From contig CACVBU010000236.1 of the NCBI GenBank assembly GCA_902728285.1, positions 124,001 through 188,000 of the forward strand: a stretch of DNA of 64,000 nucleotides. Reading direction: 5' to 3'. Position 1 is the first letter of the stretch. Each line of letters starts with the position of its first letter. The notes under the pieces were generated by a model. The model worked only from the letters and a program-made list of their open reading frames with translations, was not told the DNA's origin and searched no databases. The stretch comes from Clytia hemisphaerica. Its lineage: Eukaryota; Cnidaria; Hydrozoa; Leptothecata; Clytiidae. A program made the position numbers and the translations under genes. Shown here in pieces: positions 20,240 to 39,956 of the stretch.

Positions 20240-22750
20240 CTCAGTGTAGGCTTCTAATGGGCGCGAAGATGTTCTTTGATGGTTGGTGTCCGACGACAAA
20301 ATGTCGTCATTTTTATGTCATCATTGAGTATATGTAAAAGCGCGTTTCGTGGTCACAGGTCGTATTGGGTCTATTGATCACATGGAAGGAGATCTCTGGT
20401 CAATTTCTGCTTGTCTGAAAGAAAGGTTTTAAGACATTTTTAAATGTTGATCAAATTCAAAACATAACGTACCCCTCTAAATCTTCTTCCAACGTTTTTT
20501 GGTCAATTTGATGACGTCACCATACTACGGATTTGTTCGAAACACTCTCAGATATAACAAGGGGACGTTAAAAATCATTTTCGATCTACCAAGGAAGAAA
20601 ATAAAAAGTTATGAACTGATAAAAATCAAAATATCAAAAATTTGATTAAGTTTTCGGAATATTTCATCCTCCTCTCTACAGCTTTGTACCTTTGTCTATA
20701 AATGGACCCAAAAATTAACTATTCTTTTTCGTGAGTTTTTTGTCCTCTTGTTTACGCTATGATAATAGGGAAATAAACTCTTTGTGATTTTTTGGATTAT
20801 ATTTTGTGTCTTCGAAGAGAAGTAGCTCAACTTTCCCGATTAATTTCCCTTTTGGGTACACTATCACTGTAAGAGTTTAATTTTTTTGTTTATGATAATT
20901 CTCTTTTCAAAGCTAATAACCGACAGATGAAATTACAGGTTTGTTTCACACTAACAAAGGACAACCGTAACGTTTTAAGAACGTACTATTAATGTACATT
21001 ACAGATCCATTGAATATTTTGAAAACTTAAAGGAAGAAAACTTCTTACTTAGCGTGTTGATATCAAATTCATGAAAATTTGAAATTAAATTCCTTGTTAA
21101 AAATCAATCTTCCCTCTTATTATTTTTAAGGGGGTAAATTTCCCCTCTTTAAAAACAAATAATATCAGAGGGTCTAAAGAATAGTCAAGTGTGGGATGGT
21201 TAATCTTTCTCTCGAATTTCCCATAAGGTATTTTACTATGATCCTATATTATTAAGAATTAATTTTTCATTTTGATAATCTACACAATGGCACGGAAAAT
21301 TAGGACGGAGGTATAAATCCTGACGCGTCTCTGATATAAGACACTTTATTCACATCAGTTTTGTACGCTTCAGACCTGTTTAAACGGAATTTAGACAGGA
21401 AAAATTTGAAATTTTACATACGTCAGAAATAGGTAAGATTTTCTCTGTTTTGATTTGATTTTAATAGATTTTTCTTCTATATAGAAGGAGGTCCAACAAA
21501 ATTGATGTAGCCAAAACACCGCCAAATATTTTCAAATGTTGAAAGTTTATTTATTGAAAAATTATTGAAAAATTCTCATTCTCTTTACTCCGAATATTTT
21601 ACTATCGATTGTCAGTGTATCATAGACATTTTTGTACTGCACATGTATTTTACAACTTAAAATTGTTTTTTTTTTCTACGAAATTTGCCACATTTTGACC
21701 TTATTTTTTCTAATTTTCTACTTCGTGTTCATTATTTTTCCAAAAAGAATACTTTTAAACATCTATCAATTCCAGGTATATATTTATTGAGGAAAAACAA
21801 AAAAACTTGTTTTAGGCAGAGCTTTAGATACTTCTAATAAATAAACTCTGAAAGGTAAATTTTGAGATATTTAAAAAAGGAGGAAGAAAAAAAGATCGAT
21901 TTCGAATTTTTTGGAAGAACTAATATCTCTCACTGCATGTAGCGATTATCTTTTACAATATGAGTATTTTAGTACTTCGCTTAGATAGATTAAGTCTTAA
22001 TTAATGTCTGAAGGTTCCTGCTAATGATTAATAGAGCTGCTTATTTTTTGGTTCAGGTATAATAGATTTTGAAGAGTGTTTAGTTTAAGCTAGAAGCGCA
22101 GGATATAAGGGGTAGGGTCTAGAACTACATTATTCGTGCAAAGTTCGTCGGGGAAAAAAAGACCAATTTTTTTTTGCCGACGATTATTTTTAACTGATGA
22201 TTAATTTTTTCCGGCCAACATTTTTCCCGAATGAATTCAGTTACTTTGGTATTTGGAATTGTTTATTTAGCTCCATTTAAACCCAACCTCTCTTTTTGTT
22301 GAGACCTCCACCCTTTTCTTAACTTCTCCTCCCCTGCCCGTGCAAGTAAACATCCTAAACGTGAAAATAAATGTACAAGAACAAAACTTGTTTGTGAAAT
22401 TAATCTGTTTTCTTATTCATGAAAACGCCTCCTAAAGGGCTGAATATTTGGATTTTAAGTTAATTTTTAGAGCCTATAAAAAGCTATAGTCATTCTTTTT
22501 TGTATTAGTGTAAGCTTTAGATTTTTCTCTCCTGCCCTTATGGAAAGAAGTTGGTTGTTGAAAATTATTAATGTATTTTAAACTAGTCTTTTAATGGCGG
22601 AGATATTCTGCATAGCTATGAACAATATTCTATATGGTGGCGGTGATTTAATGATTTGCACCTTATCAGCCTCGTTTTTACGACTTTGACAAATGTTATG
22701 TACACTGAATAAATTTCTATCAATCGGATTTCTAATCTTTTTTTTTTCAG
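20240..22750. other. AT-rich region upstream of neuropeptide exon
   Basis: No exon was recognised. The stretch presumably holds the promoter, and any leader exon, of the neuropeptide gene, unless that mRNA is trans-spliced. A run of T ending in CAG at 22739-22750 is the acceptor of the coding exon. Confidence 0.4.
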
Positions 22751-22755
22751 GTAAC

Positions 22756-23601
22756 ATGAACTGTGTGTTGATCTTTTTGGTATTATTCCTGGCAAATAAT
22801 GTTTACTCCGCCTCCTTGACACGTGAGGAAGATGCTCTGGTAACTAAGCTACTGGACACGATCGAAAAACGGGATGCAGTACCTCGACTTGGTAAACGAG
22901 AAGTACCTAGGCTTGGAAGAGAAATTGAGGACGTACCTAGGCTTGGAAGAGAGATCGAATTGGTACCTAGACTAGGACGAGAAGCTGAAGAAGTACCTAG
23001 ACTAGGACGAGAAGCTGAAGAAGTACCCAGGCTTGGTCGAGAAGTTGAATTGGTACCCAGGCTTGGTCGAGAAGTCGAATTGGTACCCAGGCTTGGTCGA
23101 GAAGTCGAAGTTCCGAGACTTGGGAGAGAGGTTCCCAGACTAGGACGGGGAATTGACGAAGTTCCAAGATTGGGTAGAGAAGTACCTAGGCTGGGTAGAG
23201 AACTCGAAGTTCCCAGGCTAGGCCGAGAAGTACCACGGCTTGGAAAGCGTGAAATTCCAAGATTAGGAAAACGAGAGGTACCTAGACTCGGACGAAGAGA
23301 AGTACCTAGACTGGGACGTGAAGCATCAACGTATGACTTGAAACAATTGTACAATCAATTAAAACGTGAAGTCTCAAATGACATGATAGAAGCTGAAATT
23401 AAAGAAGAAAAGCGCGTTCTGAAAGCGTTCGATCTTGGCACGCGTGGTCTAATATTGAGAAGAATCGGAGATAAATTAAATAAAGATGGATTTTCTGACC
23501 AAAAACGGGATATGAATGAAAAGGAAAGTAGCAGACCATTCTTGCATGTGAAACGTACAAACTTACTCTCGTTGATCGAGAAGCTTACTTCAGAAGAATA
23601 A
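22756..23601 (+). CDS. Multi-copy VPRL-amide neuropeptide precursor
   Basis: A 281-residue precursor read from an ATG 5 bases after a strong acceptor (poly-T then CAG). Residues 1 to about 19 form a signal peptide (MNCVLIFLVLFLANNVYSA). Residues about 42-188 hold 17 copies of a PRLG unit: 16 VPRLG and one IPRLG. Each is followed by Arg, Lys-Arg or Arg-Arg and mostly preceded by acidic spacers such as REVE, REAEE or REIEL. Cleavage at the basic residue and conversion of Gly to amide would release (X)VPRL-amide. Loss of N-terminal Glu/Asp spacers is typical of cnidarian precursors, so VPRL-amide is the likely main product, of the X-Pro-Arg-X-amide class. The C-terminal 93 residues hold further dibasic sites but no PRLG unit. 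Family placement is inference; secretion and processing sites are visible. Confidence 0.9.
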   Translation: MNCVLIFLVLFLANNVYSASLTREEDALVTKLLDTIEKRDAVPRLGKREVPRLGREIEDVPRLGREIELVPRLGREAEEVPRLGREAEEVPRLGREVELVPRLGREVELVPRLGREVEVPRLGREVPRLGRGIDEVPRLGREVPRLGRELEVPRLGREVPRLGKREIPRLGKREVPRLGRREVPRLGREASTYDLKQLYNQLKREVSNDMIEAEIKEEKRVLKAFDLGTRGLILRRIGDKLNKDGFSDQKRDMNEKESSRPFLHVKRTNLLSLIEKLTSEE

Positions 23602-26715: not shown

Positions 26716-28248
26716 TCATTCCGACGTGGATGTTATTTGTTCGTCATTTGGAACCACACGGATAGGCTCAATGCCCTCAATATATCGATTTGGTCTCTCT
26801 CGAATGTCTCGAACTTTTTTCAAAAGAGTGTCCCATTGCAATTCACTCAATTTAAAGTTTTCGTACATGTTGACGGCTGACATCCAGAAAATTGGGCATT
26901 TCTTTGTATCAAAACTCTCCTCCAAGCTTTGTAAGAGAGAATCAATGCAACGATCCAAATTTTCAAACCCGTCGACACCGTGTTGCTCTAACGTGAAAAA
27001 TAAAATATATTTCAAATGGATAGATTTCAGCTTGTTAGCGGACACAGGGAACACGTGATTTTTACAAATTGTTCGAAAACCAATGAAACATTTCCGAATC
27101 GATGTTGGAACGTGTTTCATTAATGTCACTTCAGCTTTTGAAAACGATATCCGCCATGTTGATCCAGTTCTCATCCCTTGTTCTCGAGGCACAAAATGGC
27201 AGCCGTTTCCCTTTATTGCATCTATTTCACCGTCTGCCGGCCATTTAGCATTTCCTCTTTGTCCCCAATCACTTATGTCAGGCCATTCATCACATTTTAA
27301 GGAATATGTTAAATCACAATGAAAGCGATCATGTTTATCTTTCTCCGATCCAAGTTTGTATTTGATTGAAGGCCCTTTAATGTCGATGCGTGCAAAGTTA
27401 ACATACCTCTGCAAGCAACACATGCAAAATAGTTGACAACAACTTTCCTCAACGTAATCTGGGAACGAATCAAAAGTCAAAGAACGAATTGTTTCCTTTA
27501 TCATTTTCTTGATAGTATATCCTTTCAATTCCTCATTATTAGAAGTGATGTTGAAAAAGGGCGGGGTTGTATCTTGAGTTACCCGAACCCCTGGGTTATC
27601 TTCAGTAATGTTTGACGGCCAGTTCCATTCCCCATCGTATGTTAAAAGTGTAGCGTGGTATTCTTCCGTCGATTCTCGATTGAAACTTACAAAATCTGTC
27701 TTAGGCGAAATCATAAAATCAAGGTCAGAAACCAATGCATGATTTTCAATGATAGTTTGGTTAGATGCAGAATCAATCCAAGCAAGAGATATTGGTATAC
27801 TAAGCCCCTCTGCTACACTACCAGCTAAAAATAACTCAGTTTCAATGTTCAACTTTGGTTTACTCTCAAGTGTTTCTTTGGTGATTCTAAGATATCTCTT
27901 GGCTTTGTTTGTAGCTTTGTCCAAATTTGTTGGTATGTGAACAAACAAATTATTTAAACATTGTTCAAGAGGTTCTGGAGACATATTTAGTTGGATTTGT
28001 TTGGTTGGCTTTAAATAACACCATTGGCAGAGGAAGATCAAAATAAATATGACTACTGCTATTGCACATCCCGTTGCGACATTTATTTTATAATATTGCT
28101 TTGTAAAAAGTGGGAGTGTGAAAACCAATGCTGTAATACACAAGCCAATCACAAGAAAGATTGATAAAGACAACCAAATCGTACGACATTCAATAACTGT
28201 TAACGGTGGCCGATTTCTTATCTTTTTTAAGTATCTACAACAAGCCAT
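26716..28248 (-). CDS. Membrane-anchored Mab-21 / cGAS-like nucleotidyltransferase-fold protein
   Basis: A single-exon gene of 510 residues starting at the ATG at 28248 (MACCRYLKK). A splice acceptor (TGTGCAG) lies 7 bases before it, which decides this start. Two hydrophobic segments at about residues 24-45 and 57-77 form an N-terminal hairpin anchor. A Mab-21/cGAS-like fold follows: GS motif (LAGSVAEG, about 143), an acidic pair S-D-L-D-F (about 175-177), a third Asp in FHCDLTYSL (about 312), and the C-terminal helical part WRISFSKAE, then LKYILFFTLEQ. The GS plus three Asp positions are those needed for nucleotidyl transfer in cGAS-like receptors, so catalysis is possible. The family also contains non-catalytic members (Mab-21, ITPRIP-like). 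The cysteine-rich stretch at about 270-279 (CCQLFCMCC) could bind metal. Family placement is from motifs; function is not established. Confidence 0.75.
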   Translation of the reverse strand: MACCRYLKKIRNRPPLTVIECRTIWLSLSIFLVIGLCITALVFTLPLFTKQYYKINVATGCAIAVVIFILIFLCQWCYLKPTKQIQLNMSPEPLEQCLNNLFVHIPTNLDKATNKAKRYLRITKETLESKPKLNIETELFLAGSVAEGLSIPISLAWIDSASNQTIIENHALVSDLDFMISPKTDFVSFNRESTEEYHATLLTYDGEWNWPSNITEDNPGVRVTQDTTPPFFNITSNNEELKGYTIKKMIKETIRSLTFDSFPDYVEESCCQLFCMCCLQRYVNFARIDIKGPSIKYKLGSEKDKHDRFHCDLTYSLKCDEWPDISDWGQRGNAKWPADGEIDAIKGNGCHFVPREQGMRTGSTWRISFSKAEVTLMKHVPTSIRKCFIGFRTICKNHVFPVSANKLKSIHLKYILFFTLEQHGVDGFENLDRCIDSLLQSLEESFDTKKCPIFWMSAVNMYENFKLSELQWDTLLKKVRDIRERPNRYIEGIEPIRVVPNDEQITSTSE

Positions 28249-28298
28249 ATTGCCTCTGCACAAACTAACTTTACAATGATTAATTATTTCGTATATAC

Positions 28299-28434: not shown

Positions 28435-28965
28435 ATATTATGCTCCTTCGGTAGAGCACTCTTTGAAGATACATTTAACTTTTACATATATTTCGTATAT
28501 ACAGTGCAGATGAAACTAGGAAACGTAACTCGGAGTGTATACAAATTGCACAAGCGACGTTAATTAGTGAATTGATTGCTTATTAATGTTTACAAGAATT
28601 TTTGTCATTGGATTGGTCGTTAACTATTCAAACAAAATAACCAATTATGTGGGCATCTTGTAAAAACTTCAACGCAACTGAGTAAATGTTGACTTTTAAG
28701 AGCTTTTAAGAGGAGACGAGCTGGAGTTTTTTTTGGAGATGCTTAACTGATTGGTTATTTTTAAATAATAGGGATGACGCGTTCTTTAGAATAAGTAATA
28801 CAATCGTTTGTCTCAACATTTAACAACCAACAGAGTCATCAAAGAACTTGTAAAAACTCCAGCTTGTCCCTTTAAGAGCTGGAGAGTCAATGCTTTCCAT
28901 CGGAGAGTAAGCAAAAAATTAGTTTGCGGAAAATAAAGATGGAAAATTATAGTATGGAAGATATG

Positions 28966-29182
28966 TGTTAGCCGAAGCTAACAAAACTGTCCTGGGGGTT
29001 CAGAATTAAATAGAGAGCAATAGAATGTGCTTTTTATAGATTTTTACTACAATGTCCTAAGTTCATAATGTCTAGTTCCATATTAAAATTCCTTTTTCTA
29101 ATTAAATAGTTGCGGCTAGATACAAAGAATAACCTTCAGCATAATGCCGAAGGTGGGCCGTATTTCATATAGCTGCCTGACA
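28966..29182 (-). repeat. 3' LTR of the retroelement
   Basis: A 217-bp LTR starting TGTTAGCC and ending CCTGACA on the plus strand. It matches 39573-39790 except for one G in a G run. Its edge forms a short hairpin TGTTAGC-CGAA-GCTAACA. On the minus strand a TATAAAAA box lies at 29031-29038, pointing leftwards to the Mab-21-like gene. Confidence 0.95.
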
Positions 29183-29192
29183 ACCCTTTCCT
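29183..29192 (-). other. Polypurine tract
   Basis: Directly inside the 3' LTR the minus strand reads AGGAAAGGGT, a purine run in the place expected for plus-strand priming. Confidence 0.7.
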
Positions 29193-29235
29193 AAACGAAG
29201 CGATTCTCCGCAATCGTTGAAAAATAAAAAAAATT

Positions 29236-29400
29236 TTCTAATTAAAATAAAATGCTACAATCTTTTGTTTGTTTTTTGGTATAAAAAATCCTAATCAAAA
29301 TAAAATACTACAATCTTTTGTTTGTTTTTTAAGTATGAAAAATTCTAATTAAAATAAAATGCTACAATCTTTTGTTTGTTTTGTGTTTATTTTTTGAAAA
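29236..29400. repeat. Three 53-54-bp tandem units near 3' end of retroelement
   Basis: Units starting near 29236, 29289 and 29343 share CAATCTTTTGTTTGTTTT and TAATTAAAATAAAAT-like blocks. They lie in the untranslated part between the envelope-like ORF and the 3' LTR. Confidence 0.75.
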
Positions 29401-29801
29401 TCCTACTTCTTGATAAAATAAAATACTACTTATGTATGAAAATGTAAAAAGAAAAGAGATGAACGTGGGAGTCTGAGTTCATCATTGAAAGACATGTATA
29501 CGATAGGTTAATTCGCCGTGTTGAAGACTGATGCCTTCATGTTGGTTTTGGGAGAACTTGTTCACCAACCCAAACGAGTAAAACAATCAACACTACTGTT
29601 TGTGTAATGCTTTGCTGTGGTTGATGATTGATTTCATTCCCAAAGTCTGTTAAGACATTCGATGCGTATCACCGAATTGCCGATTTCACTGAAGCGCGAT
29701 TTCATCTAACGGTAAGTGCAAATTTTGTTATATTTCGGTATTTGTGAATCTTTTAAAATTTAGAGTTCTATTATGTTCGCTTTGCCACGTGGTGTCGTTC
29801 T

Positions 29802-32800
29802 CTACGGATTCTCTTTTTTATAGATTCGATGACGACATTTGATGGATGTTCTGGTACTGATGTTTGGTCCTGAAGTCCAGGTAACTTTTAATACTTCACC
29901 AAAGTTGAAGTTTTTCTGTAGTATATCCGGTATGTTGACTTCCATGATAGAAATTGCTTGAGTGTTTGACGCAATTACTCTTCCGGATCTTGCTCCGATT
30001 GTGGTGATGCCCGTTGAGTACTTGGTAGAATTCATATCGATGGTCTTCAAATTGCTGCATGCCATAGCTGAGGTCTCCTTTGTGACTGTCGTAGTTGGAG
30101 TCTCGTTTGTGGTCGTCATGGCTATTCGCATTGTCATGGCTGCTACAGTTACGAGCCATAGTGATAATAGTCCGATCATTAGCTTCTTGATTGACTTGTT
30201 ATATACGAATGGACCTTTAACGAACAACTTGGGATGCTTGAACTTTGAAGGGTTCACCCGTGCCATTCCTTTCTTCGTCTGGATGTTCTCATTCGGCAGG
30301 TTCACAACTGCTTTGATTCTCTTCAAGAAATCTAGACCAAGCACTAGGTTGAATTCCACGTTGCTTGACACATACACTTCATGGAGCCAACTTTGACTTC
30401 CTATGGCCAGTGGGAGGATAGTCGACCCTACTATCTCCACTGTGGATCCAGTTATTGACTTCACTGTACCAAAGTCTCTCGTGTCATCTGTCATCATGAA
30501 TGGTTCCACGTTGCATTGGTCCCACATTTCCTTTTTGATGAAGGATATAGGGCTGCCGGTATCGATTAAAGCTTCTAGTTTGATTGGCATGTTCCCCAAC
30601 AATGCTGTTGCCGTCACCAACATCCCGTCATTTGTGCTTCCATTGATGATGTGCTTTACTGCCGAAACATGGTTTGCTGAATTTTCTTCCTGTTTTCGCC
30701 TGTTGCCTCTTCTGGATTTCAGACTTCGAGGTGGAAGCTCTGGTGGCTGATCTTTTGGAATTTGCTTTGATTGTTTTTCCTTTTTCTTCCTTTCAGTAGC
30801 ATTCTGGCTCGTTCCTGGCATACTTGATATGTATCTCTCGACTTCTTTTCGAACATACTCTTGGATTATTCCCATTAGTACCAAATCCGATTTGATGTCG
30901 TGATTTGCGGGGGTAGTTATGTTCGACATTTCAACATTATTTCCAGTAACTCCTTTTGCTTGCAGCTCACTTCTATACTTGAACAGCAAGAAGAGTAAGA
31001 TGAGTCCAACGACGATTATGAGTCCCATCATGACCCATTTGTTGAAGATTTTGGCAATGCCTTCAGCAGCACTGTCAATTAATTCGCTTCCTGCGTCTCC
31101 GACTGCATGGATTAGTTCACTTCCCGCTCCGCCCACAGCCTTTACAGTGTCTGTTAATCCCTTACCGAGGGCAGATATGACTTGGCTGGGAGATTCTGAT
31201 AGGAAGTTTCCAAGTCCGTACGTGATAGCTGTTAAGATGTCTGGCTTGTGGGGTGTTTCTTGATTTGCTTTCATCCTTGCCACTTCTTCTGTGATTTCCG
31301 CTAATTCACTGACGGCTCCGTAGACTCGAGACATGATTTCGGATATGGTTACTGGTGGAAGATGGAACTTTTCTTCTAGTATGATATCCTCGTGATCCCC
31401 TATGATGTCTTGGATGACATCTTGTGACTGAAAATCCTCCAGAGATTTCAATAGGGATTGTGTCTTTCGGATTGTGCCATTCCTGCTTATTCTGAAGGAG
31501 GATTGTTCGTTATCCACCACGAATAGAGCATCGCGTCTCGCGCATGAGATTGTTGGGCTTTCATTCACCACTTGCCTTGTCGAGAGCACCAAGAATTCTG
31601 AGAATGGCGAATCCTGAGAATGTGTGCCATTAACACTGTCCTTCTGTTCTTCAGTTCCACTCCCATTCGAGATTCTGCGGATGGGAAAATGTAAGTAACA
31701 AGTGTTATTATACTGTCTTGACCACCAGATTTCGACTGCTTCCTTGATTTCCATACACTCTTTCAACATGATTGCGTCTCCCATTGGTTTAACAATGACG
31801 TTTTGACCACTACGGATCCATTCATTTGCTGCAGAGGGGAAATGATTAGTTATCCAATGGTAAAGTTTGTTTTGACCAGCTTGAAGATTGCATGTTCTTC
31901 GCATCTCTTCTAGAAGGTGATGTTTGTGATTGATGAGTGCATTAACAATATGTCCTTGTACTATTGGAAGTGTCGAAGTGGTGCTGGCTTTCGTGGCAAA
32001 TTTCCTTACTTTAGTTAGCGAATGTATCTTCGTTTCAGGTGGCAATTCTTTCGATGTCACCACAAAACCATTGTCAATTTGGATGATGTATGGTTCCAGT
32101 AGGTGCTTTATGGAGAAATGTTCACTTTTATAGAACGTCTTCTGTGCAAGTTTGTCTTCTCTCCACTCGTATGCTGCTGAAACGTGTCCGGCCAGTCCTA
32201 GCTCAGGAATCGATATGAAGTTTTCTGCTTGTAGAACAGGTAATACTTTCATCAATTGAAAATCGTGATTATCATGCTTGAGCTGATAGTAGAGAATAAG
32301 TGTTGTTGTGTCTTCCGTATTGTTATATACTGGTGTACAATAAGCTGCTGGCATTGGCGGAACATACTTGATACCAGTGTTTTTGGGTTCTTTCCCGGCC
32401 TCTAGCTTTATTACAGTTCCAAAGTCTGATTCAGTGTTCATGTTTCCACAACTCGTGTTTGCAAAATAACTCATTTGTAATTTCGAGTCACTGCCCGTGA
32501 TGTACGCTGTTTGAATTTCAAATTCGTAGAAATAGTGCCACAATATCTTGCCAACGGGACAAGTGTCAGGATACCATATACCTTTATCGTCTTTCCTCCT
32601 GACCACCGGAGGAATAAGTGTGCGCACTCTGTATGTCGAGCCATAACTTTGAAATTTATACGGGAAAGACATATCCACATTGTTTGTATCTCCGAAGATT
32701 GCTTGCCGGATCCATTGGTCGCACTGTATTGGATTCACTGGTAGATACGTGCTACCTTTCCAGTCTCTGGCGTTCCCATTCTTCACTCTTGACTTTCCGT

Positions 32801-33131
32801 TGCAATTTTCCTTTACTTCGATTGCCCTGCATATGTAAGTGAAGAAGTGAGTGGTTTTGGGTTGGAACTTGAATATCTTGTGGTCCTTCACGTTCACTTC
32901 AGTGGCGTCGTTGTTCAGGTTGTCACAGGAGTCGATTGTTTGAGGTGCATATACTCCTAATATTTTGCTTTGTTTACAGTCGAACAACTTCAGTTTCGGT
33001 GAAACATCTTCGGTGCTATTGTTCGTAACTGTTTCATTGTGATTGTCCTTTATTGTCGTTTTGTTTGTAATGTTTGTTTCGGCATTCACGACAGCAATGC
33101 CAAAAGTGATGAAGATTAAAAACTTCTGCAT
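29802..33131 (-). CDS. env: Envelope-like glycoprotein with C-terminal retropepsin-like domain
   Basis: An uninterrupted 1109-residue ORF downstream of pol and in another frame. Residues 1-17 are a signal peptide. Residues 18-698 are an ectodomain with many N-glycosylation sequons and cysteines. A long helical region (about 597-620) and a Gly/Ala-rich membrane-proximal region (about 639-695) lead to a transmembrane segment at about 699-718. This layout is reminiscent of class III fusion glycoproteins of the herpesvirus gB type, but that is inference from layout only. After a basic, proline-rich cytoplasmic stretch, residues about 835-940 look like a retroviral aspartic protease: LIDTGS at 855-860, a flap-like glycine region and LVLGLDFL at 929-936. 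A second hydrophobic segment follows (about 983-1001), then about 108 residues. Pol has its own protease, so this domain is extra. Confidence 0.8.
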   Translation of the reverse strand: MQKFLIFITFGIAVVNAETNITNKTTIKDNHNETVTNNSTEDVSPKLKLFDCKQSKILGVYAPQTIDSCDNLNNDATEVNVKDHKIFKFQPKTTHFFTYICRAIEVKENCNGKSRVKNGNARDWKGSTYLPVNPIQCDQWIRQAIFGDTNNVDMSFPYKFQSYGSTYRVRTLIPPVVRRKDDKGIWYPDTCPVGKILWHYFYEFEIQTAYITGSDSKLQMSYFANTSCGNMNTESDFGTVIKLEAGKEPKNTGIKYVPPMPAAYCTPVYNNTEDTTTLILYYQLKHDNHDFQLMKVLPVLQAENFISIPELGLAGHVSAAYEWREDKLAQKTFYKSEHFSIKHLLEPYIIQIDNGFVVTSKELPPETKIHSLTKVRKFATKASTTSTLPIVQGHIVNALINHKHHLLEEMRRTCNLQAGQNKLYHWITNHFPSAANEWIRSGQNVIVKPMGDAIMLKECMEIKEAVEIWWSRQYNNTCYLHFPIRRISNGSGTEEQKDSVNGTHSQDSPFSEFLVLSTRQVVNESPTISCARRDALFVVDNEQSSFRISRNGTIRKTQSLLKSLEDFQSQDVIQDIIGDHEDIILEEKFHLPPVTISEIMSRVYGAVSELAEITEEVARMKANQETPHKPDILTAITYGLGNFLSESPSQVISALGKGLTDTVKAVGGAGSELIHAVGDAGSELIDSAAEGIAKIFNKWVMMGLIIVVGLILLFLLFKYRSELQAKGVTGNNVEMSNITTPANHDIKSDLVLMGIIQEYVRKEVERYISSMPGTSQNATERKKKEKQSKQIPKDQPPELPPRSLKSRRGNRRKQEENSANHVSAVKHIINGSTNDGMLVTATALLGNMPIKLEALIDTGSPISFIKKEMWDQCNVEPFMMTDDTRDFGTVKSITGSTVEIVGSTILPLAIGSQSWLHEVYVSSNVEFNLVLGLDFLKRIKAVVNLPNENIQTKKGMARVNPSKFKHPKLFVKGPFVYNKSIKKLMIGLLSLWLVTVAAMTMRIAMTTTNETPTTTVTKETSAMACSNLKTIDMNSTKYSTGITTIGARSGRVIASNTQAISIMEVNIPDILQKNFNFGEVLKVTWTSGPNISTRTSIKCRHRIYKKENP

Positions 33132-33330
33132 TCTTGTTTTAATCTTTTTTCAATGTTTGTGCCTTCTGCATAAGTTTCTCTTATGAAGAATTCGTTTGTA
33201 CAATTTTCTCTTCTTTTTCATTTCAGGATGGCTGCCATTCAAATGCATGTGAATAGATGCAACATCCCGTCATTCATATTATCATTAACAATTTACGATT
33301 GATGGTGTTTTCCATATAAGGTAATTGAAT

Positions 33331-36300
33331 TCATTTTGTTTTAAAGTTTTTCCAGTATTGTTCAATTATCTCTTTAGGAATATTCTCTTCAGGTTCCCAA
33401 GAATTTTCTTCTTTTTCGTAGTTTAGCCATTTCACCAGGAATTTGGTTCCCTTTTTGTTCCTTTTGTGTTTGATCAATTTCTCCACCAAGTAGTAGTCTT
33501 CTGGTAGTTGTTCCTCATGATCGTGTCGAATTTCGGCTTCTCTTGCTGTTTCTATGTCATTTTCTGACTCTTGGAGTTCGTCGCTTGCTACTCCATTTTG
33601 GGTTTGTCTCGTCTTTGTGTTTTGCTCTTCCTCCAGCTTCTTCCAAGGCTTCATGCGGTCGTAGTGAACACGAGCTGGAGTATCTTTTCCTCTCTTTTTT
33701 ACTTGATACAGGGGATGATTCTCTTTGAAAACTGTGTACGGACCTTCCCATTTTGGAGCTAGCTTTCTTGACAAGTTTTTGGTTCTCCTCTGTATTGTGA
33801 TGTATACTTCATCTCCAATACTGTGTCTATTGGCATTCTTTACTGATCGCAAGCGCGAATATTCCTTGCTGTCCGCTAAGTTTGTTTTTACTTGCTGATG
33901 CAAATTTTCCAGTTTATTCTTGAGGTGATGCAGGTATTGGTTGGGAGTTTGGTGGTTCTCCACATCTCTCGTAATAGGTAACTCGGTTGGTTGGTGAGCG
34001 ATCCTTCCGAAGAGAATTTCAAATGGCGAAACTTTCCTTGTTTTGTTGACGGAGGACCGATACGCGAACAACACCAGTGGAAGTCTTACATCCCAATTTC
34101 TTTGGTTCGTATCTATCAGCGTAGATAATGAATCTGCGATCACTTTGTTGAATCTTTCGACTTGACCATTAGATTTCGGTGAGTATGGTGCTGTCTGTAG
34201 TTTCTTTATTCCGAGTAATCTGCAAACTTCTTTCATTAGGTTGCTGACAAAGTTTGTTCCACAGTCCGACAAGATTGTTGTCGGAGTTGAAAATCTTGCG
34301 ATGACTTCGTTGACCAGAAGTGATGCGATTATGGGGGTTTCAGTAGTTGGCACTGCAAAACACTCGGGCCATCCACTAAAACGATCAACGAATGAGACAA
34401 TGTATCTGTTACCAGCGTGCGTTTCCACGTAAGGTCCAAGGACGTCACAGGAAATGTCTCTCCAGGGTGCTGTAGCTTCCAGAGGGTACAATTCAGATAT
34501 TTTCTTTCTTCCTTTGTAGATCGCACATTTCTCACATTCCTTGACCTTCTTGATTATGCCTTTCAACATTTCTGGCCAATAGTAAGCTGCTTTCAGCTTC
34601 TGGTATACGATTTCTGAATTCAGATGTCCTGCAAATGGGGTAGCGTGAGCTTCATGTATTAACTGGTCGCGATTGCTCTTTGGAACACATAGTCGTCTTT
34701 CTGCTTGGCCATTTCGATTGGTTATTTTGTGCAGGAAACCATTGTCATCCAAGAATAATTTGTCATTGCTTTCGCGATTCTTGAATTCTTCCTCCTCCTC
34801 CAATTGCTTCAACCAATCTTCTGCTTCAGCATCTTCAGTAACTCTCAAGATCACGTTGACTGCTTGGGGTAATCTTGATACTCCATCTGCATCTCTGTTC
34901 TTCAACCCTGGCTTGTAAATGATTTGGAAGCTGAATTGTTGAAGATACAGGTACCATCTAGCCAGTTTCGATGTTAAGTCCTTTACATTGAAGAGGTGAA
35001 CCAATGCTTGGTGGTCGGTGTGAACAGTGAATTTGTTACCTTCCAGGACGAAATAGTGTGTTTTGATTGCATGCAACATTGCTAAGCATTCCTTTTCGGT
35101 GACCGTGTAGTTGCATTCTGCCTTGTTTAATTTTCTACCACCATAGAAAATTGGGTGTTCTTTTCCATCTTGGCCAATCTGTGTAAGCACGTGGCCGATT
35201 GCTGTACCTGACGCGTCTGTGTTCAGGTTGAATTCCTTGGTGAAGTCTGGATAGGCCAAAAGTGGAGGATGTAGGAGTGTTACGATCAGCATCTCATACC
35301 TATCTTGAAGGTCTGTGCTCCATTGGAATTGTACATCTTGCCGCAACATATCATACATCGGCTTTGTTATCTTGGAATGATCTTTGATGAATCGTCGATA
35401 ATACGCGATGAGTCCTAGTATGGATTGCAACTCTTTTTTGTTTGAGGGAGGCGTCTTGTTTTGCAATGGCACCAGGTTGGTTGGCGCAGGCAAAATTCCT
35501 TCTCTGCATACTATGTGACCAAGGAATTTCAGCGAATCTTTTCCAAAATGACATTTGGAGCTTTTGGCTGTCAAACCTGCGTTTTGTAAAAGCTCGAAGA
35601 CTTCTCGCAAGTGCCCAAGATGCTCCTCAAATGTTTTACTGAAAACCACAATATCATCAATAAATATGAGAACGCAACGTCCTCTGACCTTTTTCAGCAC
35701 ATCCTCCAGCAGCTTCTCGAACGTACCCGATGCTCCTTGCAAACCAAATGGCATCCTCACATATTCGAAAAGGCCAACGTGACAGCTGAAGGCGGTTAAC
35801 GGTATGGACGATTTTTCCATTTTCACTTGATGAAATCCAGACATCAGATCCATTGTCGAGAAGAACTTTACTCCATGCAAGGCTGCTAAAATATCGGACG
35901 TGTTCGGGATAGGATAAGCGAATTTCTTGGATGCTGCATTGATCTTTCGATAATCAACACACATTCTCCAACCTCCTCCGGCTTTTCCAACCAAAACAAT
36001 TGGGCTGCTGAATTCTGAATTGCTTTCCCGTATGATGCCTTTACGCAGCAAATCCTGAACTTGATTCTCGATCTCTTTCCTTTTGAAGGGTCCAACACGG
36101 TATGGTTGTTGTCGGATGGGAGTTGGGTCCAATAATTCTATCTTGTGCTCGATTCTGTCTGTTGAGCCAAGTGGCTGCGAAGAATCTGGAAATAAGCCAC
36201 TGAATTCCTCGACGAGGTCTGTGATCTGCCTCTCTTGAACGTCGGTTAAGCAGCTTGACTTTGGCACCAAGGTCGGCTTGATTTCATTGTGCGGTGGTAG

Positions 36301-36924
36301 ACTGGTATCACTGTTGTCTTCTTCTGCATACCCAACTGGTGCGGAGGCTTTGAATTCAATCTTTTCATCTGAAACATTTGTAATTACAAAGATAGCGTTA
36401 TTGGCTGACACTGGATTCTTCCCCATGGAAGTGAACACTTTTATGCTAATTTCCTTAGCAAGAGTCGTCAAGTTGCTTTTGTGGGATCCATTAAAGTCTG
36501 CATGGAATTGCTTGCTTTCCCCCGGTAAAATGTGTAACATTTCATCGTTTGTTTCATGGGAAACAATGTCGAAATTTATTTCTTTCGTATGTCCTTGCGC
36601 GTTAATAGTTAGTTTGCGCTGATGGAAGTTTACCGTAATGCCGTGATCGCTCAAGAAATCAATGCCCAATATTGCTTCAGTAGCAATGTTTTCAAGGACC
36701 AGAAACTTGTGACTTATTAAAATGTTACGTCCGATTCCAAGTTCCAGGTTTATGAATCCTTTCGTAAGAAGTGTCGTGCCCGATGCACTCATCAAAGTGA
36801 TTTTCGATTTTCCATCAATACTCCTTTTAAGTTTTTTCATCATATTAACACTGATGATAGAGACCAATGATCCACTGTCAATCAAAAAATTTATGTTTAA
36901 ACTTCCAACAGAAACTTCAAGCAT
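33331..36924 (-). CDS. pol: Retroelement pol: protease, RT, RNase H, integrase, chromodomain
   Basis: An intact 1197-codon ORF in the same frame as the gag C-terminal part, from which it is separated by one TGA. Domains by residue: aspartic protease about 1-100 (LIDSGS, active Asp16; ILGIDFL 85-91); reverse transcriptase about 270-475 (MPFGL; FIDD 421-424); RNase H about 560-680 (NTDASG; TVTEKE); integrase about 750-1000 with a zinc-binding H/H-C797-C800 module and catalytic Asp827, Asp887 and Glu923; GPY/F-type module about 1053-1095; chromodomain about 1142-1193 (LVEKL, FLVKW, SWEPEEN). All catalytic motifs are present. It would be made as a gag-pol fusion by readthrough. RT and domain order place it in Ty3/gypsy (Metaviridae). 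Confidence 0.95.
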   Translation of the reverse strand: MLEVSVGSLNINFLIDSGSLVSIISVNMMKKLKRSIDGKSKITLMSASGTTLLTKGFINLELGIGRNILISHKFLVLENIATEAILGIDFLSDHGITVNFHQRKLTINAQGHTKEINFDIVSHETNDEMLHILPGESKQFHADFNGSHKSNLTTLAKEISIKVFTSMGKNPVSANNAIFVITNVSDEKIEFKASAPVGYAEEDNSDTSLPPHNEIKPTLVPKSSCLTDVQERQITDLVEEFSGLFPDSSQPLGSTDRIEHKIELLDPTPIRQQPYRVGPFKRKEIENQVQDLLRKGIIRESNSEFSSPIVLVGKAGGGWRMCVDYRKINAASKKFAYPIPNTSDILAALHGVKFFSTMDLMSGFHQVKMEKSSIPLTAFSCHVGLFEYVRMPFGLQGASGTFEKLLEDVLKKVRGRCVLIFIDDIVVFSKTFEEHLGHLREVFELLQNAGLTAKSSKCHFGKDSLKFLGHIVCREGILPAPTNLVPLQNKTPPSNKKELQSILGLIAYYRRFIKDHSKITKPMYDMLRQDVQFQWSTDLQDRYEMLIVTLLHPPLLAYPDFTKEFNLNTDASGTAIGHVLTQIGQDGKEHPIFYGGRKLNKAECNYTVTEKECLAMLHAIKTHYFVLEGNKFTVHTDHQALVHLFNVKDLTSKLARWYLYLQQFSFQIIYKPGLKNRDADGVSRLPQAVNVILRVTEDAEAEDWLKQLEEEEEFKNRESNDKLFLDDNGFLHKITNRNGQAERRLCVPKSNRDQLIHEAHATPFAGHLNSEIVYQKLKAAYYWPEMLKGIIKKVKECEKCAIYKGRKKISELYPLEATAPWRDISCDVLGPYVETHAGNRYIVSFVDRFSGWPECFAVPTTETPIIASLLVNEVIARFSTPTTILSDCGTNFVSNLMKEVCRLLGIKKLQTAPYSPKSNGQVERFNKVIADSLSTLIDTNQRNWDVRLPLVLFAYRSSVNKTRKVSPFEILFGRIAHQPTELPITRDVENHQTPNQYLHHLKNKLENLHQQVKTNLADSKEYSRLRSVKNANRHSIGDEVYITIQRRTKNLSRKLAPKWEGPYTVFKENHPLYQVKKRGKDTPARVHYDRMKPWKKLEEEQNTKTRQTQNGVASDELQESENDIETAREAEIRHDHEEQLPEDYYLVEKLIKHKRNKKGTKFLVKWLNYEKEENSWEPEENIPKEIIEQYWKNFKTK

Positions 36925-36932
36925 TGGAAGGC

Positions 36933-36939
36933 CTAGTCA
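36933..36939 (-). promoter_or_regulatory. Leaky stop TGA-CTAG between gag and pol
   Basis: The gag stop is TGA at 36937-36939 and the next four bases on the minus strand are CTAG. Gag and pol are in the same frame with no further stop between them. UGA followed by CUA(G) is the best-known readthrough context, so this is probably how pol is expressed. Confidence 0.7.
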
Positions 36940-38318
36940 CTTTGTAGTATCCTCCTGGTGTTGATTCTTGGACCGACAAAATTTTGAAATGTGTCCATTT
37001 TTTCCGCACGTATGGCATGTGATATTCCTGTATCGTTTGGTGCGACACTCTGCCTCTACATGTCCCTTTCTCTTGCAGAAGGTACACGTCTTGCCGTTGC
37101 TGCGGTCTTTCGTTATTGAATTTAGTGATGATTTGACATCTTTGGTGATCTTCTTTAGCTGTTCGATCTGTCTTGTCATTGCCACTGGATCGAAGTCATT
37201 GTTGTCCATGACCTTGGAATGGGAAATACTTCTTCCATTGTTCATTAACAGCTGGCGTACCATGTCCATTAATTCGCCATCCTGCTGGTTCGGTCGTTCA
37301 AGTGCGTTCTTGAGCTGAATGAAACGTACAGCTTCGTTGTACGTTTTTGGTTGCTTCATCTGAAGCCGGTAGGCGAGTTCTGGCCTAAGATTTGCGGTGA
37401 GAATGTCTATCTTTGTGGTGTCAGGTGTTCCGAGCTCTGCAAACGATAACTCGAGTCTCTCCAAGAAACTTTCAAGATCTTCACTTCCCTGTCGCTGCGT
37501 GTATAGGATAGCACGGTGCTTCGCAATATCTTCTGGCGAACAGAATTGATTTGTTATACGCTCTTTACATTGTTTGTAGTTCTTCTGGATTTCCAGAGGA
37601 ATGGTGTTGTAGAAGGTCAGTGCTCTCTTCACCAGACAATTTGGCAAAATTAGAGCCTTTTGCAGCTCTGTTCATTCATTCAAAAGAGCATACCTCTCAT
37701 ATTTGTTGAAGAATTGTTTTATGGTGAGCTTTTGTCACCAAAGCATGGCAGATCAGCTATTCTGGTGCTGAGGTGTGGACGATGGTCGATTGGTTGCGTT
37801 TGCTTCTGCCTTTGGTCAGCCATCATTTTCTCGAATGCTGCCACGAGTCCTTCCGATTCACTTCCAGTACCGATTGGATTGACATGTCTTTCAACGTTCG
37901 GACTGTGTTTGCTTTCGGCAACTTGCTGGATTGAGTCAATCTTGTCACCGTCGTCCCCTCTTGGAAATAGATAATATTCATCTTCTTTGAGACCATTTAA
38001 CTTGTTTTCTGTCTGGCTGCTGTCCATAACTGTTTTTATGGTTATTGGTACTTGGAAAGCCTTCTTTCTGTGATCCCTTTTTGAGGATGGATGTTGGAAC
38101 GATGTCTTTGTTGACTCAGGAGTGTACAGCAAAGTTGAATTTTCAGCTGATGATTCTCCTATTGATAACGGTGTGTTTGACTGTTCCTTTTCAGCTTCTT
38201 CGTCTTCTTCGATTGAAGATAAGCTTGTTTTTGACTCGTTTTCTTCTTCTGCTGAGTAATCTGCTTCGTCTGGCACAGAGGTTGATCTTTTTCCTTTTCG
38301 AAACCACCTCTTACTCAT
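36937..38318 (-). pseudogene. gag: Retroelement gag, broken by a frame change and a stop
   Basis: The N-terminal part is open from 38318 to 37719 (about 199 codons, acidic and Ser-rich). The C-terminal part is open from about 37647 to 36937. It has a capsid-like helical region and two CCHC zinc knuckles (CTFCKRKGHVEAEC and CHTCGKNGHISKFC, about residues 188-224 of that part). The two parts lie in different frames, with the change falling near 37719-37740, and an in-frame TGA at 37672-37674 follows. Two lesions make this copy unlikely to produce a normal Gag on its own, although pol and the envelope-like ORF are intact. A frame change by programmed slippage cannot be excluded, but no canonical slippery heptamer is seen. 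Confidence 0.8.
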
Positions 38319-38418
38319 TTTTTAGATATCACTTCTTGTATGATTGAATGCTTGTTTGAAAGCGTCTGTTTGTTTGAATGTGTCTATTTGTTTAGAAACA
38401 ATTGCTTTGTTATCTAAT

Positions 38419-38625
38419 CTACTTTGAGATAATTTCTCCATTGTTTATGTTTACCTCATCTTGGGTACGATTTGGCTGATCTGTTTGTTTATCATTTGGC
38501 TCCTGTGCTGCATTGTTTGTTGCTTTGTTTTGGGTTATTACTTCATTCTCTTTGAAGTTTAGCTTTACATTTCTCAAATCTCTTTCTGCATTAATTATGA
38601 TTGTTTCATTTGTGTTTGTTTCCAT
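38419..38625 (-). other. Short ORF in retroelement leader
   Basis: A 68-codon ORF with an Asn/Glu-rich, low-complexity product lies between the 5' LTR and gag, in a different frame from the gag N-terminal part. No domain was recognised. It may be an upstream ORF or chance. Confidence 0.3.
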
Positions 38626-39552
38626 GGAAACGATAACTGGCTTCTCCTGAAGCTGCCTTCAAGTTTTACATATAACTGATTCGCTGGGGGTTTTTCCTTG
38701 ACCCCAGTTTCCATGATATTTTTATATATATATCCTTTTCTATCAATTTCAGCGGTAGCTAATTTGCCTATACGGCGTAATTGTACCTGGCTATTATTTT
38801 ACCTTTTCCTAGGCTTCCGCTTTTATACTGTATTGATAGCTCTGCTGTTAACTTTCTTTATAATGTTTATTCAGGTGAACGTGAATATGAAGCAAAAGAC
38901 TCTCGAATATAGGGCCCTTCCAAAAGAATTTATTTCAATATCCTTGCCACCAGCGATCGCTCTCCGTCAAGGTGATCTGCTGTCCTTTGCAAATCGAAAA
39001 TGACGTACGTGTGAACTGTTTCGATATGGTATTGTCAATTACCGCATGCATCCGTGGTACCGAGACACCAGAGCACGACTTACAACCATCTACAGCCAGC
39101 GCGCTGTATTACTTTTATAAATAAACTGTTATTTTTTTCTCCGATTTGTCACGCGTGTTTCCATTTTTGTTTATAGTTTTGTAAATATACTTTTCTGATA
39201 TGTCATATGTGTTTCCATTTTATTTATTGTTTCTGCTGCCATATTCTTCCGACGGCATCATACGTTTGTGTATTAACTTCACATAGCCAATTTTAAAACT
39301 GCTTCTTGTATCATTCTCTATGATTCATATACTTCGTCGTGACCCTGACGCGGGGAGCTACAGGGTACTGTCCTTGCTCAAGGGAGCCCTGGAGCATGTT
39401 ATAGTCTTGCTCATGACATTTCCATTGATTAAATTCCCATCAATCAAATTCTGACTACCTTTGAAGGTGCCAGTCTTCCATTTATAAACTTAAGTTCTCT
39501 TTTGTAACTCTCGGTTCCCCAGAACAGTACAACAGTCCAAGATCCATTAAGG

Positions 39553-39570
39553 ATCTCGGTAGAACCTCCA
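39553..39570 (-). other. Primer-binding site
   Basis: Two bases inside the 5' LTR the minus strand starts TGGAGGTTCTACCGAGAT. TGG pairs with the CCA end of a tRNA primer. I could not identify which tRNA it matches. Confidence 0.6.
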
Positions 39571-39572
39571 CT

Positions 39573-39790
39573 TGTTAGCCGAAGCTAACAAAACTGTCCT
39601 GGGGGGTTCAGAATTAAATAGAGAGCAATAGAATGTGCTTTTTATAGATTTTTACTACAATGTCCTAAGTTCATAATGTCTAGTTCCATATTAAAATTCC
39701 TTTTTCTAATTAAATAGTTGCGGCTAGATACAAAGAATAACCTTCAGCATAATGCCGAAGGTGGGCCGTATTTCATATAGCTGCCTGACA
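39573..39790 (-). repeat. 5' LTR of the retroelement
   Basis: A 218-bp LTR identical to the other copy except for one extra G. On the minus strand it contains a TATAAAAA box (39639-39646) suited to driving the genomic transcript. Confidence 0.95.
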
Positions 39791-39956
39791 ATATGTAGGA
39801 TTGTATGATTGACTTGAACATTACTTTCAAGTTTTATACAGTGGTGTATGTTGAACTATGTTGTGGATTTCGGATTGCCAAGGTTCTAAGCTGATAATAA
39901 TTTAGGATATCCAAGAGTTCAAACTTTTTTTCCATTTTTGATGTTTCTGATGTTTA

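What the first reader, a model, noticed from the sequence alone, without database searches (positions are those of the whole stretch)
29802..33131. Envelope-like protein carries its own retropepsin-like domain and a second membrane segment
Seen: one uninterrupted ORF with a signal peptide, a large ectodomain and a TM at about 699-718. Beyond these are LIDTGS (855-860), a flap-like region, LVLGLDFL (929-936) and another hydrophobic segment (983-1001). Known: retroviral and Metaviridae proteases sit in gag-pol, and this element has one there too. Inference: if the chain starts outside and crosses at the first TM, the extra protease faces the cytoplasm or virion interior. It could trim the envelope tail in cis, as some retroviral proteases do to activate fusion, or be a degenerate domain kept as a binding module. 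I know of no described element with this arrangement.
Basis: partly seen in the sequence, partly recalled or inferred. Interest (0 to 1): 0.88.

Follow-up and report, generated by a model that had tools for sequence, protein, structure and literature searches.

The report
Envelope protein with built-in protease
An animal retrovirus-like jumping gene carries a cell-entry protein with a second, apparently intact protease built into its predicted inner side; related families in the same genome share this layout, so it is a conserved design whose job still has to be tested.

Summary
The ORF (minus strand, 1109 codons) lies in a young 10.8-kb chromodomain Ty3/gypsy-type element whose pol has its own protease (PR). 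The envelope has a signal peptide, ectodomain, transmembrane segment (TM1), a retropepsin with complete motifs (D-T-G-S, LVLG), a second segment (TM2) and a C-terminal domain. Searches outside the host genome found no relative. The genome holds this family (A) and four more (B-E) with the same order; B-D are 24-25% identical to the window's envelope. In B-D pol and envelope share a frame; one copy is a single 3182-codon gag-pol-env frame. Families A-D each have two proteases: D-S-G in pol, D-T-G in the envelope. D-T-G is kept at 32 of the 35 loci examined. Against six older copies the envelope PR has dN/dS 0.10-0.36. Two related envelopes lack the PR, so it is part of a separable module. The envelope is of the Monjiviricetes (class III) kind. 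Charges put the PR inside. Best reading: a membrane-tethered retropepsin that cleaves the envelope's own inner loop on assembly, like R-peptide removal. Activity, site and fold are not shown; one key survey could not be read.

The parts
39573..39790 (-). 5' LTR, TG...CA, 218 bp
28966..29182 (-). 3' LTR, 217 bp, one 1-nt indel from the 5' LTR
39791..39795 (.). target-site duplication CATAT (5' side)
   Evidence: read
28961..28965 (.). target-site duplication CATAT (3' side)
   Evidence: read
39553..39570 (-). primer-binding site TGGAGGTTCTACCGAGAT; the tRNA-Gln assignment is recalled, from no call
   Evidence: the same string stands behind the 5' LTR of the family C copy at C861
37719..38318 (-). 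N-terminal ORF in Gag position, 199 aa
   Evidence: no Pfam match
36937..37647 (-). Gag part with zinc knuckles; ends in TGA followed by CTA, in frame with pol
33331..36924 (-). Pol ORF, 1197 aa
36625..36924 (-). pol retropepsin (LIDSGS ... ILGIDFL)
   Evidence: PF13975 5.2e-9
35509..35985 (-). reverse transcriptase
   Evidence: PF00078
34933..35247 (-). RNase H
   Evidence: PF17917
34177..34686 (-). integrase zinc-binding domain and core
   Evidence: PF17921 and PF00665
33349..33492 (-). chromodomain
   Evidence: PF00385 8.2e-14
29802..33131 (-). envelope-protease ORF, 1109 aa
33081..33131 (-). signal peptide, about residues 1-17 (end placed by eye)
31038..33080 (-). ectodomain, 18-698; residues 404-469 weakly match herpes gB; relatives match PF24664 Monjiviricetes fusion glycoprotein
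30978..31037 (-). TM1, 699-718, basic residues after it
30627..30977 (-). fast-evolving linker 719-835
30267..30626 (-). envelope retropepsin, about 836-955
30552..30563 (-). catalytic motif D-T-G-S, 857-860
30324..30347 (-). LVLGLDFL, 929-936 (psi-loop glycine 932)
30123..30185 (-). TM2, 983-1003, basic residues before it
29805..30122 (-). C-terminal domain 1004-1109, conserved end KCR.R, sequons; predicted outside

Best explanation
A recently mobile chromodomain Ty3/gypsy-type element makes a Monjiviricetes-type (class III) fusion glycoprotein with a second retropepsin in a cytosolic loop between two membrane segments, followed by a small outside domain. Shown from sequence: the order of parts, complete catalytic motifs, conservation in five families and purifying selection in the past. 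Inferred: the ectodomain faces out and the loop faces the cytosol. Envelope trimers crowd at budding sites, two loops pair to form the obligate retropepsin dimer, and the enzyme cleaves the loop, in cis or between neighbours. This separates the fusogen (ectodomain plus TM1) from the PR-TM2-C-terminal part, a maturation step that works like removal of the murine leukaemia virus R peptide but is done by the envelope's own enzyme rather than the Gag-Pol one.
For: Five families A-E have the order ectodomain, TM1, PR, TM2, C-terminal part. D-T-G is kept at 32 of the 35 distinct loci fetched that span the motif (many are near-copies, so not independent). In the four-family PR alignment 19 columns are invariant (131 columns, 121 profile positions) and include D, T, G, S and the psi-loop G (P=6e-5 if invariant positions fell at random; B and C are close, so this overstates). 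Envelope-PR dN/dS against six older loci: 0.10-0.36, bootstrap upper limits 0.27-0.85. Between B and C: PR 68% identical, linker 48%, C-terminal part 44%, ectodomain 78%. Net charge after TM1 (+2,+2,+3,+4) and before TM2 (+4,+3,+3,+4) places the loop inside in four of four families tested. Families F and G, without PR, end roughly 100 residues after one TM. R-peptide cleavage activates fusion in MuLV (PMC3917443, passages read).
Against: No activity, cleavage site or dimer is shown. Both AlphaFold models are unusable (pLDDT 37 and 38). Three of seven family C loci have a changed motif (D-T-S-S twice, D-N-G-S once), one of them (C473) in an otherwise open 1197-codon frame, so some copies persist without an intact motif. 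Among near-copies, PR dN/dS is 0.09 for window-C193 on four changes, 0.44 and 1.19 for two family C pairs, and the other four pairs have too few changes or none. Codon usage trained on pol is weak for residues 976-1109 (in-frame -0.006 and 0.032, other windows mostly 0.1-0.25), although the C-terminal part is conserved between families. Sequons do not favour one topology in family A, which has four in the loop and two after TM2. Both family E copies are damaged. The element's own pol PR could do the same job.
Confidence: 0.5

Rival explanations
1. The envelope retropepsin is active, but its substrate is not the envelope tail: tethered under the membrane, it processes Gag, host membrane proteins or a restriction factor at the budding site.
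For: Same conservation of the catalytic motif and predicted cytosolic placement; the pol PR is of another type (D-S-G in families A-D), which suggests divided labour.
Against: No substrate evidence. Sitting in the same chain as a fusogen makes self-cleavage the simplest use.
Confidence: 0.25
2. The retropepsin fold is kept as a dimerisation or binding module, with catalysis secondary or lost.
For: Three of seven family C loci have a changed motif, one in an open frame.
Against: D-T-G at 32 of 35 loci examined; each of families A-E has it; invariant positions include the catalytic motif.
Confidence: 0.12
3. The PR-TM2-C-terminal stretch is expressed as its own protein (splicing, or host cleavage of the chain), and the fusion in the ORF is only a genomic economy.
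For: Fused frames are common here: pol and env share a frame in families B-D. Codon signal is weak in the last 134 residues.
Against: Order behind TM1 is the same in five families; no expression data.
Confidence: 0.1
4. Chance fusion or damage in one copy, of no function.
For: Gag is interrupted in this copy.
Against: The same arrangement in families 24-25% identical; a 99% copy at C193 with an open envelope frame.
Confidence: 0.02

Closest known systems
Anakin BEL/Pao elements of mosquitoes with a chuvirus glycoprotein (PMC7642597, passages read; the name Anakin from PMC10084718 and PMC12440569 passages)
   Same: LTR element that captured a Monjiviricetes-type class III fusogen downstream of pol
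   Different: BEL/Pao; PR listed in pol, none in the glycoprotein in the passages read. The same group found no clear capture by Gypsy elements (PMC10084718, passages read)
Atlas virus, hookworm belpaovirus-like element (PMC9094657, passages read)
   Same: Gag-Pol-Env as one uninterrupted frame, like the family B copy at C129
   Different: Phlebovirus-like class II Gn/Gc; no PR in Env in the passages read
Envelope-carrying metazoan gypsy elements / errantiviruses (Chary & Hayashi, eLife 108449; not held, known only from passages of PMC12859917, PMC13172572 and PMC12992720)
   Same: gypsy elements with envelopes in cnidarians, ctenophores and tunicates; may include these very lineages
   Different: Could not be compared; whether a PR in Env is reported there is unknown
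Murine leukaemia virus R-peptide maturation (PMC3917443, passages read)
   Same: Proteolytic removal of an inner C-terminal piece of Env controls fusion
   Different: There the viral Pro enzyme cleaves Env in trans; that Env carries no PR is recalled
ASPRV1 and DDI1 retropepsin-like proteases
   Same: Best sequence relatives among solved structures of the envelope PR
   Different: Cellular proteins; no fusogen (recalled)

Membership tests
Retropepsin (single-domain aspartic protease) | D-T/S-G-S/T/A active-site motif | tested here: met
   D-T-G-S at 857-860; D-T-G at 32 of 35 loci examined
Retropepsin (single-domain aspartic protease) | hydrophobic-hydrophobic-Gly psi loop | tested here: met
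   VLG, IIG, IIG, LLG, IIG in families A-E
Retropepsin (single-domain aspartic protease) | profile match to curated families | tested here: met
   family B over cut-off for PF13650, PF13975 and PF00077, family C for the first two; window copy just under and family D clearly under (best 0.0014); four-family profile to PDB 5e-9
Retropepsin (single-domain aspartic protease) | retropepsin fold | tested here: inconclusive
   AlphaFold mean pLDDT 36.9 and 38.1
Retropepsin (single-domain aspartic protease) | homodimeric proteolytic activity | not testable with these tools
   needs protein
Monjiviricetes / class III fusion glycoprotein | PF24664 match | tested here: met
   met for relatives: B 1.5e-9 and C 1.8e-8 over cut-off, D 1.3e-5 under it. 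The window copy itself has no PF24664 match, only weak gB 0.046, and is joined to B-D by the alignment
Monjiviricetes / class III fusion glycoprotein | class III fold, trimer, fusion loops | not tested
   ectodomain not modelled; sequence profile to a gB structure is E=2.1 only
Ty3/gypsy (Metaviridae) chromodomain LTR element | LTRs, target-site duplication, PBS | tested here: met
Ty3/gypsy (Metaviridae) chromodomain LTR element | PR-RT-RH-IN order and C-terminal chromodomain | tested here: met
   families B and D
Ty3/gypsy (Metaviridae) chromodomain LTR element | place in an RT tree with reference clades | not tested
   no reference set was fetched

The most novel reading that the evidence does not exclude
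A lineage of animal LTR retroelements encodes a self-maturing fusion glycoprotein: a class III fusogen with its own cytosolic retropepsin between two membrane anchors, distinct from and working beside the Gag-Pol protease, so that envelope activation does not depend on Gag-Pol.
Probability: 0.45. Interest if true: 0.88.

Novelty: new variant of a known kind. Interest (0 to 1): 0.73.

Why it matters
Retroviral proteases are thought of as Gag-Pol enzymes. An envelope that brings its own would be a different answer to how fusion is held back until assembly. The genome offers a natural comparison: related envelopes with the module (families A-E) and without it (F, G), and PR copies with intact and changed motifs.

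Tried and rejected
Single damaged copy or chance fusion: rejected, since diverged families share the order.

Recent duplicate of the element's own pol PR: not supported. The two PRs are 30% identical over 92 aligned positions, and the five envelope PRs tested fall on one side of a branch from four pol PRs, with moderate support only (85/94, 86% of 200 bootstrap trees, one very long branch; family E not included).

Is the PR gain single and older than the split from F and G? Unresolved: the envelope-core tree of seven rows did not separate PR-bearing from PR-less rows.

Relatives outside the host genome: none at E<=1e-3 for the whole chain, none at 0.01 for the PR alone and none at 10 for the tail in the protein collection; none in viral contigs, prokaryote genomes or plasmids (tail only). 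I take these collections to hold few animal genomes, so this says little about other animals.

Structure: a single-sequence model of the tail and a two-sequence model of the PR are unusable; no fold search was run on them.

The copy census is a lower bound. Of the 26 PF24664 matches in the genome, 21 were examined (20 as given loci, C526); 19 have an envelope PR and 2 (C912, C526) do not. Five (C342, C574, C554:307k, C435, C113:1593k) were not examined. Some of the 59 matches (for example C554:252k, C824:99k) were not fetched either. A wider search with the family D envelope did not complete.
Full report
WHAT IS THERE. The ORF runs on the minus strand from 33131 to 29802. It lies in an LTR element of 10,825 bp (28966-39790). 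The LTRs are 218 and 217 bp and differ by one indel. The element is flanked by CATAT on both sides, so the insertion is young. In transcription order it holds an ORF in the position of N-terminal Gag (no Pfam match), a Gag part with zinc knuckles, an in-frame TGA followed by CTA, then Pol (PR, RT, RNase H, integrase, chromodomain), a 199-base gap, and the envelope ORF. Gag is interrupted in this copy: its two parts lie in different frames, with stops between. Envelope and Pol are open.

IS THE SECOND PROTEASE REAL. Yes by sequence. In the window copy, Pfam PF13975 (9e-6) and PF09668 (2.6e-5) match 851-944, just under the curated cut-offs. Against the pol PR the segment scores 85, versus at most 59 in 5000 shuffles. 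Families B and C pass curated cut-offs; D stays under them (best 0.0014). A profile of four families finds ASPRV1 (5e-9), DDI1 proteins (3e-6 to 8e-4) and, only as whole-sequence scores with no single stretch passing, HIV-1 protease constructs (0.003). AlphaFold gave no usable model, so the fold itself is not shown.

RELATIVES. The window's assembly (417 Mb, 951 contigs) gave 59 matches to the envelope, a lower bound. Family A includes the window, an open copy at C193 (99%), near copies at C254, C760, C680 and in part C232, and decayed older copies. The envelopes of families B, C and D are 24-25% identical to the window's over the alignment, yet share the order hydrophobic N-terminus, ectodomain with ten invariant cysteines, TM1, PR, TM2 and a C-terminal end KCR.R. 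Family E (C170, C40; both copies damaged) was found through PF24664 and has D-T-G-S, IIG and a following hydrophobic segment in the same place. The B copy at C129 and the C copy at C861 are bounded by LTR-like repeats of 99.0% (about 507 bp) and 97.3% (about 880 bp) with TG...CA ends. At C788 and C455 the direct repeats found (99.6%, 276 bp; 98.2%, about 600 bp) do not have both such ends and look partial; none was found for D. In B, C and D the envelope is in frame behind the chromodomain; the C129 copy is one open frame of 3182 codons from gag to the C-terminal domain.

TWO PROTEASES. In families A, B, C and D a pol PR stands before the RT and reads D-S-G, while the envelope PR reads D-T-G. 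E was not checked for a pol PR. A tree of nine PR domains puts the five envelope PRs on one side of a branch (85/94; 86% of bootstrap trees), with one very long pol branch, so this is moderate evidence.

SELECTION. D-T-G is kept at 32 of 35 distinct loci that I fetched and that span the motif: A 14 of 14, B 9 of 9, C792 (B/C-like) 1 of 1, C 4 of 7, D 2 of 2, E 2 of 2 (loci seen under two ids were counted once; many are near-copies and so not independent). The exceptions are D-T-S-S at C473 and C677 and D-N-G-S at C628:2094k, all family C; C473 is otherwise open. Against six older family A relatives the PR has dN/dS of 0.10, 0.13, 0.19, 0.28, 0.36 and 0.33, with bootstrap upper limits 0.27-0.85. 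The first two have nearly saturated dS (2.9 and 2.3), a further 35-codon piece had no finite dS, and the copies have decayed for some time. Between B and C synonymous sites are saturated and PR dN is 0.25. Near-copy pairs carry few changes: window-C193 0.09 on four changes, two family C pairs 0.44 and 1.19, the rest no usable value. Codon usage trained on pol supports the frame through the PR but is weak for residues 976-1109; conservation of that part between families is the better evidence that it is coding.

ENVELOPE TYPE. Families B and C match PF24664, Monjiviricetes fusion glycoprotein, over cut-off; D is below it. The window copy shows only a weak match to herpes gB at 404-469 (0.046), and the ectodomain profile touches a gB structure at E=2.1, behind a pilin at 0.76. 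I read these as a class III fusogen; the fold is not tested.

TOPOLOGY. In A-D the 15 residues after TM1 carry net charge +2 to +4 and the 15 before TM2 carry +3 to +4. The positive-inside rule (general knowledge) then puts the 240-267-residue loop with the PR in the cytosol and the C-terminal domain outside. Sequons are present after TM2 in all four but do not discriminate in family A, which has four in the loop.

MODULE. Two related envelopes lack the PR: F (C912, open frame 2339) and G (C526, open frame 2112). Each ends roughly 100 residues after its membrane segment, and no PR was detected at E<=1 in the fetched stretches. The PR-TM2-C-terminal part is therefore separable. Whether it was gained in A-E or lost in F and G is unresolved.

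HOW IT MOST LIKELY WORKS. Shown: the parts, the motifs, the conservation. Inferred: crowding of envelope trimers at budding sites lets two loops form the dimer that retropepsins need (general knowledge); the dimer cuts the loop and frees the fusogen from the TM2-anchored part. In MuLV, removal of the C-terminal R peptide is needed for fusion, and uncleaved tails hold the trimer legs together (PMC3917443, passages read). The difference here would be that the envelope brings the enzyme. A membrane-tethered enzyme acting on other substrates remains a real rival.

KNOWN OR NEW. Anakin (BEL/Pao, chuvirus glycoprotein; PMC7642597) and Atlas virus (single Gag-Pol-Env frame; PMC9094657) are the nearest described arrangements among the passages I read; those passages mention no PR in the envelope. 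A 2023 survey reports no clear capture of such glycoproteins by Gypsy elements (PMC10084718, passages). Searches for papers on a protease in an envelope and on envelope-bearing or chromodomain elements listed none with this arrangement in the titles and abstract starts shown. The most relevant survey, Chary & Hayashi (eLife 108449), is not held; a meeting report says it finds envelope-carrying gypsy elements in cnidarians, ctenophores and tunicates (PMC12859917, passage). So 'undescribed' is provisional.

HOST. An animal, judging by haem peroxidase, Mab-21, mitochondrial carrier and neuropeptide-precursor-like ORFs over their Pfam cut-offs and a receptor-like ORF under it; the species was not identified.

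Noticed in passing
36937-36939 (-): Gag and Pol are in one frame separated by TGA followed by CTA, a context recalled as favouring readthrough; suggests gammaretrovirus-like Gag-Pol expression rather than frameshifting.
   Followed up: partly
37640-37720 (-): Gag of this copy is interrupted by a change of frame and stops although the LTRs are nearly identical.
   Followed up: partly
L015:4709-9001 and L009:3-6254 (C129): One open frame of 3182 codons from gag through pol to envelope, PR and C-terminal domain.
   Followed up: yes
L056 (C912), L058 (C526): Related Monjiviricetes-type envelopes without the protease, with tails of roughly 100 residues; the C526 tail holds PPHY.
   Followed up: partly
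L012 (C473), L053 (C677), L049 (C628:2094k): Family C copies with changed catalytic motif; C473 and C677 share the same codon change, which suggests that it was copied or duplicated.
   Followed up: partly
29802-33131, residues 973-979; L011: Families A and D share the string GPFVYNK just before TM2, absent in B and C: a candidate functional or recognition site.
   Followed up: no
29231-29385: Three tandem copies of a unit of about 54 bp between envelope and 3' LTR.
   Followed up: no
22693-23601 (+): ORF with many VPRLGR repeats, a probable amidated neuropeptide precursor.
   Followed up: no
26716-28263 (-): Mab-21-like ORF with hydrophobic N-terminal segments beside the element.
   Followed up: no
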